Assembly: GCF_008704715.1 (NCBI RefSeq)
Contig: NZ_CP023689.1
Location: forward strand, 6,014,001 to 6,078,000
Direction: 5' to 3'
DNA from: Streptomyces chartreusis
GTDB taxonomy: Bacteria > Actinomycetota > Actinomycetes > Streptomycetales > Streptomycetaceae
DNA length: 64,000 nt
This document shows positions 12,016 through 36,762 of this stretch, one piece after another. The position numbers and the translations under genes are program-made. Within the stretch, counting starts at the first letter, position 1. Each line of letters opens with the position of its first letter. The notes beneath the pieces were generated by a model. It did not search any database. It was given only the letters and a program-made list of their open reading frames with translations, and had not been told where the DNA came from.

Positions 12016-12383
12016 GGGGATGATCGGTTTCGACAGCGGCTGTTGAAGCAGGGGAAGCGTGTCGAGGAAGCGGCAATGATCTCGTAAACCATATGTCGCA
12101 AAAAATAATCGCCAACACCAAGCGCGATTCCTTCGCCCTCGCTGCCTAAGTAGCGACTTGCGAAGTGTCAGCCCGGGGCTGTTCCCGACCCGGATCCTGG
12201 CATCAGCTAGGGAACTAAACCTTGATCCCGGTCACGGGGTGAAGAGGGAAACCAAACAGTGACTGGGCCCGTCGGCGACTTGTTCGCGTGATCGCCGGGG
12301 CCGAGAAAATCACAGCGAACTGCACACGGAGAAGCCCTGATTTTGCACCGTTGGACGCGGGTTCGATTCCCGCCATCTCCACG
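12016..12383 (+). ncRNA. ssrA: Transfer-messenger RNA
   Basis: The 5' end GGGGATG pairs with CATCTCC at 12374-12380 to form the tRNA-like acceptor stem. The T-arm GTTCGATTCC is at 12361-12370. The mRNA-like part has a resume codon at 12111 and encodes ANTKRDSFALAA followed by TAA (12111-12149). The C-terminal ALAA marks tagged proteins for ClpXP-type proteolysis. The trailing ACGA shows that the CCA end is not encoded. The upstream gap contains -10-like TACGCT (11918-11923) and TACGAT (11947-11952). Confidence 0.95.
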
Positions 12384-12421
12384 ATCGGGAGGTTTCCGAA
12401 CCTCCCTAACCCATGTGGGCA

Positions 12422-34006: not shown

Positions 34007-36409
34007 GTGGCCGCTCAGGCTCCACAGGAAACCGCGCTCGACTCCCTGCGAGACCGAGAGATCGGCGTCGAACAGGAACACCTCGACCGGGTGTACCGAC
34101 GCCTCGAGGAGAAGATCCACGAGGCGGAGTTCCTGATGAACGACGCGGCCAAGCGCGGCCAGGTCGGCACACCCGGCGCGCTCGCCGAGCGCGACGCGCA
34201 GGTCTTCCGTGCCGGCGTGCACCTCAACAGGCTCAACAACGAGTTCGAGGACTTCCTCTTCGGACGCATCGACCTGCTGCTCGGCAAGGACGGCAAGAAG
34301 GGCCCGGACGGCGCCTACACCGCCGTCGAGCCCGCCGAGGGCGCGGTGCGCGAGGACAGCACCGCCGACATCGCCGAGACCCTGCACATCGGCCGTATCG
34401 GAGTGCTCGACTCCGACTACGCCCCGCTGGTCATCGACTGGCGGGCCCCGGCCGCGGCGCCCTTCTACCGCTCGACCCCGGTCGACCCCGGGCGGGTCGT
34501 ACGGCGCCGGGTCATCCGCTCCAAGGGCCGCAGGGTCCTCGGCGTCGAGGACGACCTGATGCGCCCCGAGCTCAAGGCGTTCCTCGACGGCCGTGAGCTG
34601 CCCGTGATCGGCGACGGCGCCCTGATGGCGGCCCTCGGGCAGGCCCGTGGCCACACCATGCGGGACATCGTGGCGTCCATCCAGGCCGAGCAGGACCTGG
34701 TCATCCGCGCCCCCGCCGCCTCGGTGACGTACGTCGAGGGCGGTCCTGGCACCGGCAAGACCGCCGTCGCCCTGCACCGCGCCGCCTACCTGCTCTACCA
34801 GGACCGGCGCCGGTACGCGGGCGGCATCCTGATCGTCTCGCCGACCCCGCTGCTGGTCGCGTACACCGAGGGCGTGCTGCCGTCGCTCGGCGAGGAGGGC
34901 CAGGTCGCCATCCGCGCGATCGGCTCCCTGGTCGACGGCACCGAGGCCACGCTGTACGACTCCCCGGCCACGGCCCGCGCCAAGGGCTCGTACCGCATGC
35001 TCAAGGTGCTGCGGAAGGCGGCGCGGGGTGCGCTGGAGCTGGGACCGGGCGGCACGGCCGTCGCCGCCGGGAACGGCGCGGACCGCGGTGGGCAGCTCGC
35101 CTTCGGCGACGACGACACTCCCGTGCCGGCCCCCGCCGGACCGCCGACCCTCCTGCGTGTCGTCGCCTTCGGGCGCCGGCTGGAGCTGGAGGCCGACGCG
35201 CTGGAACGCGTCCGCCGCACCGCCCTCGGCGGCACGGCACCGGTGAACCTGCTGCGCCCACGCGCCCGCAAGCTGCTGCTGGACGCCCTGTGGGCGCAGT
35301 CGGGCGGCGCCACCCGGCACACCGACCCGGAGCTCGCCGCCGAACTGCGCTCCTCCTTCGACGAGGACGTGGCCACGGAGGACAGCTTCATCGCCTTCCT
35401 CGACGCCTGGTGGCCGGAGCTCACCCCGAAGGCGGTCCTCACGGCGATGGCCGACGAGCGCCGCCTCGGCCGCTGGGCACGCCGGATCCTCAATCCCGGC
35501 GAGGTCCGCAAGGTGGCCCGCTCGCTCAAGCGCGACGGCCTCACCGTGCACGACATCGCCATGCTCGACGAGCTCCAGGCGATCCTCGGCACCCCGGCCC
35601 GCCCGCGCAGGAAGCGCGACCTGGACCCGCTCGACCAGCTCACCGGCCTGGAGGAGCTGATGCCGGTGCGCGAGGAGTCGCAGCGCGAGCGCGCCGAGCG
35701 GCTGGCGGCCGAGCGCACCGAGTACGCCCACGTCATCGTCGACGAGGCCCAGGACCTCACGCCGATGCAGTGGCGCATGGTCGGCCGCCGCGGCCGGCAC
35801 GCCACCTGGACGGTCGTCGGCGACCCGGCCCAGTCGTCGTGGTCCGACGTGGACGAGGCGGCCGAGGCACGCGACGAGGCACTCGGCACCCGCCCGCGCC
35901 GCCGCTTCCAGCTCACCGTGAACTACCGCAACCCGGCCGAGATCGCCGAGCTCGCCGCCAAGGTGCTGGCCCTGGCCATGCCCGGCTCGACGTCCCCGTC
36001 GGCGGTGCGCTCCACCGGCGTACGGCCGCGTTTCGTGACTACGAACAAAGGACACAGCACGGTTGTCCGTGACACGCTCGCGCAGACCGTTCGCGAGGAG
36101 GCGGCCCGGCTGCTCGACCAGGTCGACGGGACGATCGGCGTCGTGGTCGCCATGCGGCGGCGCGAGGAGGCGGCCAAGTGGCTCACCGGGCTCGGCGACC
36201 GCGTCGTGGCGCTCGGCAGCCTGGAGGCGAAGGGCCTGGAGTACGACGCCACGGTCGTCGTCTCCCCGGCGGAGATCGCGGACGAGTCCCCGGCCGGCCT
36301 GCGTGTGCTGTACGTCGCGCTGACCCGGGCCACCCAGCAGCTGACGGTGGTCTCGGGGGACCGGGACGAGCCGGACGCGTCCGGTGTGCCGGATCTGCTG
36401 CGGGACTGA
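34007..36409 (+). CDS. helD: HelD-like superfamily 1 helicase/ATPase
   Basis: This 800-aa UvrD-like ATPase has an N-terminal coiled coil typical of HelD (residues about 10-85, DREIGVEQEHLDRVYRRLEE). Walker A is GGPGTGKTAVALHRA near residue 246, motif II VIVDEAQDLTPMQW, then VVGDPAQS, and the C-terminal LYVALTRATQQL. HelD proteins bind RNA polymerase and recycle it; some Streptomyces HelR forms protect against rifamycins. No rifamycin-associated element was seen upstream. GTG start with AAGGGGG at proper spacing. The likely small RNA gene follows its 3' end. Confidence 0.88.
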   Translation: MAAQAPQETALDSLRDREIGVEQEHLDRVYRRLEEKIHEAEFLMNDAAKRGQVGTPGALAERDAQVFRAGVHLNRLNNEFEDFLFGRIDLLLGKDGKKGPDGAYTAVEPAEGAVREDSTADIAETLHIGRIGVLDSDYAPLVIDWRAPAAAPFYRSTPVDPGRVVRRRVIRSKGRRVLGVEDDLMRPELKAFLDGRELPVIGDGALMAALGQARGHTMRDIVASIQAEQDLVIRAPAASVTYVEGGPGTGKTAVALHRAAYLLYQDRRRYAGGILIVSPTPLLVAYTEGVLPSLGEEGQVAIRAIGSLVDGTEATLYDSPATARAKGSYRMLKVLRKAARGALELGPGGTAVAAGNGADRGGQLAFGDDDTPVPAPAGPPTLLRVVAFGRRLELEADALERVRRTALGGTAPVNLLRPRARKLLLDALWAQSGGATRHTDPELAAELRSSFDEDVATEDSFIAFLDAWWPELTPKAVLTAMADERRLGRWARRILNPGEVRKVARSLKRDGLTVHDIAMLDELQAILGTPARPRRKRDLDPLDQLTGLEELMPVREESQRERAERLAAERTEYAHVIVDEAQDLTPMQWRMVGRRGRHATWTVVGDPAQSSWSDVDEAAEARDEALGTRPRRRFQLTVNYRNPAEIAELAAKVLALAMPGSTSPSAVRSTGVRPRFVTTNKGHSTVVRDTLAQTVREEAARLLDQVDGTIGVVVAMRRREEAAKWLTGLGDRVVALGSLEAKGLEYDATVVVSPAEIADESPAGLRVLYVALTRATQQLTVVSGDRDEPDASGVPDLLRD

Positions 36410-36494
36410 GCGGGACTGAGCGGGGCCGAACGGGGGCTTTGCCGGCGGCGGGGAAATGAACTCGCGGTACGGGAATGGCCTTGAGAGATCTGTT

Positions 36495-36503
36495 TGTTAG
36501 CCT
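36495..36503 (+). promoter_or_regulatory. Extended -10 promoter of small RNA candidate
   Basis: TGTTAGCCT is an extended -10 (TGn plus TAGCCT). The expected start at about 36509 coincides with the first base of the RNA's closing stem. TTGAGA at 36481-36486 is too close to be the matching -35. Confidence 0.5.
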
Positions 36504-36504
36504 G

Positions 36505-36643
36505 GGTGTGACACCGGCTCGATCCAAGCCCCCGGGCCCAACCTTCGTCGCTACGAGCGACCACTTGCCGCGAGGCGAGCATGGCGGGTCGGTGTCATGA
36601 ACGTAGGAGAGGCCCACGTCACCGTGTGACGTGGGCCTCTTTT
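36505..36643 (+). ncRNA. Candidate structured small RNA or leader
   Basis: A run of about 135 nt folds convincingly by eye. Closing stem P1 pairs 36509-36520 (TGACACCGGCTC) with 36586-36597, eight Watson-Crick pairs plus G-U-containing extension. Inside are P2, GTCGCT-ACG-AGCGAC (36547-36561), and P3, TTGCC-GCGA-GGCGA (36565-36578), capped by a GNRA tetraloop. A C-rich strand (AAGCCCCCGGGCCC) precedes P2. The RNA ends in a 15-bp terminator with T run. It could be a trans-acting RNA or a terminating leader of the malic enzyme gene. It does not match riboswitch consensus sequences I know. It may correspond to an sRNA already detected in other Streptomyces, which I cannot check. Confidence 0.65.
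36608..36643 (+). terminator. Strong intrinsic terminator of the small RNA candidate
   Basis: A perfect 15-bp stem AGAGGCCCACGTCAC/GTGACGTGGGCCTCT with loop CGT is followed by TTT. It lies about 200 bases past the helicase stop and 120 bases before malic enzyme. Confidence 0.9.
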
Positions 36644-36657
36644 CTTGCGAAGACGTG

Positions 36658-36674
36658 GCGAACAATACGTTCGC
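36658..36674. promoter_or_regulatory. Palindrome upstream of malic enzyme
   Basis: GCGAAC-AATAC-GTTCGC is a perfect 6-bp-arm inverted repeat 89 bases before the malic enzyme ATG. It may be an operator; no regulator is identified. Confidence 0.35.
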
Positions 36675-36762
36675 AATCCACGCCCGGCTAACTCCTACTC
36701 AGCGGTAGGTGCGACGATCGGACGGCATACCAGCCACACGGTGAAAGCAGAGGAAGTCGGCC

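What the first reader, a model, noticed from the sequence alone, without database searches (positions are those of the whole stretch)
36495..36643. Probable structured small RNA between the HelD-like helicase and malic enzyme
Independent signals agree over about 135 nt: an extended -10 (TGTTAGCCT), a closing stem whose first base is the predicted +1, two internal hairpins (one with a GCGA tetraloop) and a perfect 15-bp terminator with T run, without an open reading frame. It could be a trans-acting sRNA with a C-rich single strand, or a terminating leader that senses a ligand and controls malic enzyme. It resembles no riboswitch consensus I can recall.
Basis: partly seen in the sequence, partly recalled or inferred. 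Interest (0 to 1): 0.75.

Follow-up and report, generated by a model that had tools for sequence, protein, structure and literature searches.

The report
Actinomycete-wide stress-promoter structured small RNA
Between two Streptomyces genes lies a small folded RNA gene that recurs across much of the class Actinomycetes, often behind the promoter type used in thiol (disulfide) stress, yet it matches no family in the Rfam library and its targets are unknown.

Summary
Window 36510-36643 holds a folded RNA (MFE -75.8 kcal/mol, z -6.0) with its own promoter and a 15-bp terminator. It is not local: 199 of 200 sampled Streptomycetaceae genomes match, and a covariance model finds the core in 174 of 297 sampled Actinomycetes genomes (60 of 114 genera) and almost nowhere else in the phylum. 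Covariation supports the fold: a long P1 closing a three-way junction with hairpins P3 and P4 and a conserved strand CCCCGGG-N-N-CCA. No Rfam family matches. Neighbouring genes change between lineages, and the downstream gene lies on the opposite strand in 65 of 154 loci, so it is a free-standing sRNA, not a malic-enzyme leader. New here: 41 of 75 loci carry GGAAY-N16-20-GTT just upstream (background 0.17%), mostly with an 18-nt spacer and ending about 9 nt before P1. That is the SigR/SigH thiol-stress promoter. Streptomyces has both this and a housekeeping -10, plus a diverged paralogue with its own GGAAC-N18-GTT promoter. The S. coelicolor orthologue is probably the known sRNA scr2952 (coordinates not checkable here). 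Target and mechanism remain inferred: most likely a stress-induced trans-acting regulator.

The parts
36471..36498 (+). SigR-type ECF promoter: -35 GGGAAT (36471-36476), 19-nt spacer, -10 GTT (36496-36498)
   Evidence: Only GGAAT-N18/19-GTT in the 64-kb window, 0.6 expected; 35 of 43 distinct Streptomycetaceae promoters and 41 of 75 diverse loci keep GGAAY-N-GTT; consensus from PMC9205884.
36495..36503 (+). Extended -10 TGTTAGCCT of a housekeeping-type promoter, overlapping the ECF -10
   Evidence: Read directly; GTTANNNT kept in 43 of 43 distinct Streptomycetaceae promoters.
36510..36643 (+). The small RNA, about 134 nt (5' end inferred)
   Evidence: MFE -75.8 kcal/mol, z -6.04; promoter upstream, terminator at the end.
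36509..36521 (+). P1, 5' strand (pairs with 36585-36597; 13 bp)
   Evidence: Seven inner pairs each with double changes, 99.2% of cells paired.
36585..36597 (+). P1, 3' strand
   Evidence: As for the 5' strand.
36524..36529 (+). P1b/P1c, 5' strands: CCA 36524-36526 with UGG 36582-36584; G36528-C36580 and C36529-G36579
   Evidence: P1b: three pairs with double changes; P1c found by mutual information; pair types across loci G-C 40, A-U 22, C-G 5, U-A 2.
36530..36541 (+). Conserved junction strand CCCCGGGCCCAA, drawn as single-stranded
   Evidence: CCCCGGG-like motif in all A3 rows except the truncated L033; no consistent pairing partner found.
36547..36561 (+). P3 hairpin GUCGCUACGAGCGAC
   Evidence: A3 pair 47-60 (U36548-A36560 here) varies C-G/U-A/G-C with 31 double changes; the next pairs are C-G 75 of 75, G-C 73 plus C-G 2, C-G 75 of 75.
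36564..36579 (+). P4 hairpin CUUGCC-GCGA-GGCGAG with GNGA tetraloop
   Evidence: Two inner C-G pairs invariant in 75 of 75 distinct A3 rows, the next G-C in 71 with 2 G-U; loop GCGA, GAGA or GUGA.
36608..36643 (+). Intrinsic terminator, 15-bp stem and T run
   Evidence: Read directly; in Streptomycetaceae the stem sequence changes but the hairpin persists.
34007..36409 (+). Upstream neighbour: HelD-like superfamily-1 helicase (SCO2952-like)
   Evidence: Pfam UvrD-helicase matches; SCO2952 is one of four S. coelicolor HelD proteins (PMC8655204).
36763..38187 (+). Downstream neighbour: malic enzyme (SCO2951-like), probably not controlled in cis by the RNA
   Evidence: Pfam malic and Malic_M; linkage confined to Streptomycetaceae loci.

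Best explanation
It is a free-standing structured sRNA gene of a class-wide actinomycete family. In the window it is transcribed from a double promoter, a housekeeping extended -10 and an overlapping SigR-type (GGAAT-N19-GTT) ECF promoter, and ends at an intrinsic terminator. SigR would raise it during thiol-oxidative stress and after translation-blocking antibiotics. P1 clamps a three-way junction that presents the strand CCCCGGGNNCCA and the loops of P3 and P4. From there it most likely acts in trans, either by pairing the C-rich strand with G-rich ribosome-binding regions of mRNAs or by binding a conserved protein. Supported by sequence: fold, conservation, independence from neighbours, promoter motif. 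Inferred: SigR control, induction, and the mode of action.
For: Fold and covariation. Class-wide distribution. No fixed neighbour, downstream gene on the opposite strand in 65 of 154 loci, no overlap with a called gene. Promoter motif in 41 of 75 loci against 26 of 14928 background windows, with GTT 8-11 nt before the first P1 base in 55 of 68 loci that have it. The SigR consensus GGAAT-N18-19-GTT is published (PMC9205884), and T at -31 is the SigH-type preference (PMC10012870). A SigR/SigH orthologue is in the genome. SigR is induced by thiol oxidants and translation inhibitors (PMC4921905). Tandem and dispersed copies have their own promoters.
Against: No expression or SigR-binding data were available for this locus. 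Many Micrococcales and Nocardioides loci have housekeeping-type promoters instead, so stress control is not universal. A clear terminator was scored in only 25 of 154 loci with a crude test. No target was identified, and invariant paired bases in P3 and P4 are unusual for a plain antisense RNA.
Confidence: 0.62

Rival explanations
1. It is a protein-binding RNA (a sponge or scaffold, in the manner of Ms1/6S or CsrB) and not a base-pairing sRNA: P4 with its GNGA loop and the C-rich strand form the recognition site.
For: Paired bases next to the P3 and P4 loops are nearly invariant while P1 changes freely (A3); the Streptomyces paralogue keeps P4 and the C-rich strand but replaces P3.
Against: No partner known; the fold does not resemble the promoter-like bubble of 6S or Ms1; a tertiary fold alone could explain the invariance.
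Confidence: 0.3
2. It is a terminating ligand-sensing leader that controls malic enzyme.
For: In Streptomyces it lies upstream of malic enzyme on the same strand and ends in a terminator.
Against: Elsewhere the next gene differs and is on the opposite strand in 65 of 154 loci; no alternative anti-terminator pairing was seen; conserved sequence lies between terminator and malic enzyme.
Confidence: 0.05
3. It is a ligand-binding RNA that works as a separate transcript.
For: Compact three-way junction with an invariant core.
Against: No free-standing precedent of this fold known to me; no linked enzyme or transporter.
Confidence: 0.08
4. The ECF-like motif belongs to another ECF sigma factor (SigE-like), so the RNA answers envelope stress.
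For: Several loci and the paralogue have GGAAC, which SigE-type factors also read in Corynebacterium.
Against: GGAAT dominates, including in the window, and that is the SigH/SigR form.
Confidence: 0.15

Closest known systems
scr2952 of Streptomyces coelicolor (Vockenhuber 2011, as cited in PMC8388888)
   Same: Named after SCO2952, the HelD-like gene next to this RNA; expression confirmed and conserved in more than half of tested Streptomyces according to PMC8388888.
   Different: Coordinates and sequence not checkable here. PMC8388888 says it is in Rfam, but no such family matched, and the Rfam block of scr families holds other scr RNAs. No class-wide family or ECF promoter was found described for it.
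6C RNA (RF01066)
   Same: Actinobacterial sRNA with exposed C-rich stretches; the M. tuberculosis one binds several mRNAs through C-rich loops (title of a reference in PMC8628891).
   Different: 6C has two C-rich hairpin loops; here the C-rich strand is a junction. RF01066 does not match.
SigmaE-dependent sRNAs of enterobacteria (MicA, RybB; own knowledge)
   Same: sRNAs transcribed by an ECF sigma factor in a stress response.
   Different: Different fold, sigma factor and lineage.
Ms1 (RF02471)
   Same: Structured RNA widespread in actinobacteria (PMC9130861, abstract).
   Different: Ms1 binds RNA polymerase core; no match here.
SigH-promoter sRNAs of Corynebacterium glutamicum (PMC4046766)
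   Same: 44 small-transcript starts with SigH promoters were reported.
   Different: No homologue of this RNA was identified among them here.

Membership tests
Any Rfam 15 family | Covariance-model score at or above gathering | tested here: not met
   No match over the element in the window or in 20 further loci; best sub-threshold matches at E up to 10 are chance-like.
Free-standing sRNA gene | Own promoter adjoining the 5' end of the fold | tested here: met
   ECF or TANNNT promoter motif just upstream of P1.
Free-standing sRNA gene | Terminator at the 3' end | tested here: met
   Met in the window and in most Streptomycetaceae; across the class only 25 of 154 by a crude score, against 3 of 462 random windows.
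Free-standing sRNA gene | Discrete transcript | not testable with these tools
   No RNA-seq or Northern data on hand; scr2952 is the probable S. coelicolor form.
Riboswitch or cis leader | Constant position upstream of co-oriented, functionally related genes | tested here: not met
   Neighbours differ between lineages; downstream gene opposite in 65 of 154 loci.
SigR (SigH) regulon | GGAAT-N18-19-GTT promoter | tested here: met
   GGAAT-N19-GTT at 36472-36498; conserved.
SigR (SigH) regulon | Dependence on sigR, induction by diamide | not testable with these tools
   Needs experiment or the supplementary tables of ChIP-chip and RIViT-seq studies.
6C RNA | Match to RF01066, two C-rich hairpin loops | tested here: not met
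   No match; single C-rich junction strand.
scr2952 | Same coordinates or sequence as the published S. coelicolor RNA | not tested
   Original paper not held; identification rests on name and gene neighbourhood.

The most novel reading that the evidence does not exclude
A class-wide, ancient RNA of the actinomycete thiol-stress response: a three-way-junction RNA whose invariant core binds one conserved partner (a protein, the ribosome or a core set of mRNAs), made both constitutively and on demand by SigR/SigH, and so a missing RNA arm of that regulon.
Probability: 0.35. Interest if true: 0.85.

Novelty: new member of a known kind. Interest (0 to 1): 0.68.

Why it matters
A structured RNA kept in more than half of sampled Actinomycetes genomes, absent from Rfam and not found described as a family in the papers on hand, would be among the wider-spread undescribed RNAs of a group that includes antibiotic producers and mycobacteria. 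The conserved SigR/SigH-type promoter gives a specific, cheap test (diamide, sigR mutant) and points to redox and antibiotic stress. Actinomycetes have few sRNAs with known function, so a family with hundreds of homologues makes structure and target work tractable.

Tried and rejected
Rfam scans of the window, of the gap at E up to 10, and of further loci: no match. Identification with Rfam's scr families: accessions RF02824, 02825, 02826, 02829 and 02834 were tried and none is scr2952. P2 hairpin GCC-CCCG-GGC from the MFE: rejected, since diverged members do not keep it and covariation supports P1c pairing instead. Outer P4 pairs: poorly kept outside Streptomyces (88 of 99 rows unpaired at pair 60-75), replaced by P1c. 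Riboswitch for malic enzyme: rejected on context. Phage or mobile origin: no phage match; only three Rhodococcus plasmid matches. The sigma-70 consensus scan found no promoter; it demands an E. coli-type -35. G608 outside the class scored E 2.7e-4 but its fold is unconvincing.

Full report
Observation. The stretch 36510-36643 folds at -75.8 kcal/mol, z -6.04, no shuffle as stable; 36495-36660 gives z -4.25. No Rfam 15 family matches, even at E up to 10.

Distribution. BLAST-type search found the element in 199 of 200 sampled genomes of its family, the core 36510-36597 being about 95% identical even in other genera. Diverged copies on Rhodococcus plasmids let me build a first covariance model (R1). 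It finds the core in 174 of 297 genomes drawn from the class, 60 of 114 genera. In a phylum-wide draw (R2) only one weak match lay outside the class, and its fold is unconvincing. A pattern scan of named genomes gave, among others, Cellulomonas, Brevibacterium, Arthrobacter, Kocuria, Rothia, Microbacterium, Clavibacter, Nocardioides, Nocardia, Gordonia, Williamsia, Rhodococcus, Mycobacterium, Geodermatophilus and Modestobacter.

Structure. On 76 aligned loci (A3) the four helices are paired in 92.4% of cells (shuffled 80.4%, slid by 1-3 columns 32-45%), 15 of 22 pairs have changes on both sides, and no shuffle reaches any of these values. Mutual information on 100 loci (A5) ranked P1, P1b and P3 pairs at the top and added two long-range pairs that continue P1 towards P4. 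With these (P1c) and without the outer P4 pairs, 96.1% of cells pair; the pair 20-74 alone shows G-C 40, A-U 22, C-G 5, U-A 2. The RNA is thus a three-way junction: P1a-P1b-P1c, P3 and P4, with the conserved strand CCCCGGGNNCCA between P1c and P3. In A3 the bases beside the P3 and P4 loops are nearly invariant. Eighty of the 100 A5 loci were fetched with a pattern inside P3 and P4, so invariance there must be judged on A3, not A5; P1, P1b and P1c were not in the pattern. Both alignments were fitted to a model structure, which leans the counts its way, though double changes of this number are not expected from that alone; P1c was not part of the model.

Independence from neighbours. With a simple codon-usage gene caller, none of 154 loci overlaps a gene, and the next downstream gene is on the same strand in 79 and opposite in 65. 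Neighbours are lineage-specific: HelD and malic enzyme in Streptomycetaceae, a roughly 200-aa protein without Pfam match beside it in 22 loci of other families, others elsewhere. One genome has two copies 182 nt apart, each behind its own GGAAY-GTT promoter (L115).

Promoter. Upstream of P1, 41 of 75 loci have GGAAY-N16-20-GTT within 60 nt; in background windows of the same loci the rate is 26 of 14928. The spacer is 18 nt in 32 of the 41 by my count of the listing, 19 in the window. The GTT lies 8-11 nt before the first P1 base in 55 of 68 loci with the motif, so transcription would start at about P1. In the window the motif is the only GGAAT-N18/19-GTT in 64 kb. This is the published SigR consensus, GGAAT-N18-19-GTT (PMC9205884); in Corynebacterium T at -31 marks SigH promoters and C those shared with SigE (PMC10012870). 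The genome encodes a SigR/SigH orthologue. Loci without the motif mostly have a TANNNT-like -10 in the same place, read by eye. In Streptomycetaceae 35 of 43 distinct promoters have the ECF motif and all 43 keep GTTANNNT.

Paralogue. R2 also finds a second, diverged member in several Streptomyces genomes, including the window's own (C1:780603-780701). It keeps P1, the C-rich strand and P4, has a different, longer P3, and in all six Streptomyces copies read by eye has GGAAC-N18-GTT upstream.

What is known. SCO2952 is a HelD protein (PMC8655204), and an S. coelicolor sRNA named scr2952, expressed and conserved, is cited in PMC8388888. It is probably this RNA, but the original paper is not held. 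PMC8388888 says scr2952 is in Rfam; the Rfam block of scr families holds others, and nothing in Rfam 15 matches here. SigR controls over 100 genes, responds to thiol oxidants and to translation inhibitors, and includes tmRNA among its targets (PMC4921905). C. glutamicum has small transcripts with SigH promoters (PMC4046766), so sRNAs under this sigma factor are not without precedent.

Mechanism. Shown by sequence analysis: a conserved fold, a free-standing gene, a SigR-type promoter motif. Inferred: SigR control, induction by thiol stress, action in trans. The exposed CCCCGGGNNCCA suggests pairing with G-rich ribosome-binding regions; the invariant paired bases in P4 suggest instead, or in addition, a protein partner. 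I could not decide between these. No expression data were available.

Noticed in passing
G000:C1:780603-780701 (L140:1501-1599): Diverged paralogue of the RNA in the window's genome, with an extended P3, its own GGAAC-N18-GTT promoter and a terminator-like hairpin.
   Followed up: partly
window 36644-36762: Between the terminator and malic enzyme, conserved sequence including the inverted repeat GCGAACAATACGTTCGC and a GTAGGTGCGACGATCGG stretch; possibly the malic enzyme's own promoter and operator.
   Followed up: partly
window 12016-12384: tmRNA gene (RF00023), 176.5 bits; tmRNA is reported as a SigR target in S. coelicolor, but no GGAAT-N18/19-GTT was found elsewhere in the window.
   Followed up: no
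L115:3001-3260: Two tandem copies of the RNA, each behind its own ECF-type promoter.
   Followed up: partly
L031, L032, L033 (Rhodococcus plasmids): Copies of the RNA on large plasmids, one beside mihF, one (L033) lacking the C-rich strand.
   Followed up: partly
L088:3145-3843 and 21 other loci: A protein of about 200 aa (no Pfam or NCBIfam match for the members tried) lies near the RNA in 22 loci of several families.
   Followed up: partly
L084/L085 and L122/L123: Two genomes each hold one copy with an ECF-type promoter and another with a housekeeping-type promoter.
   Followed up: partly
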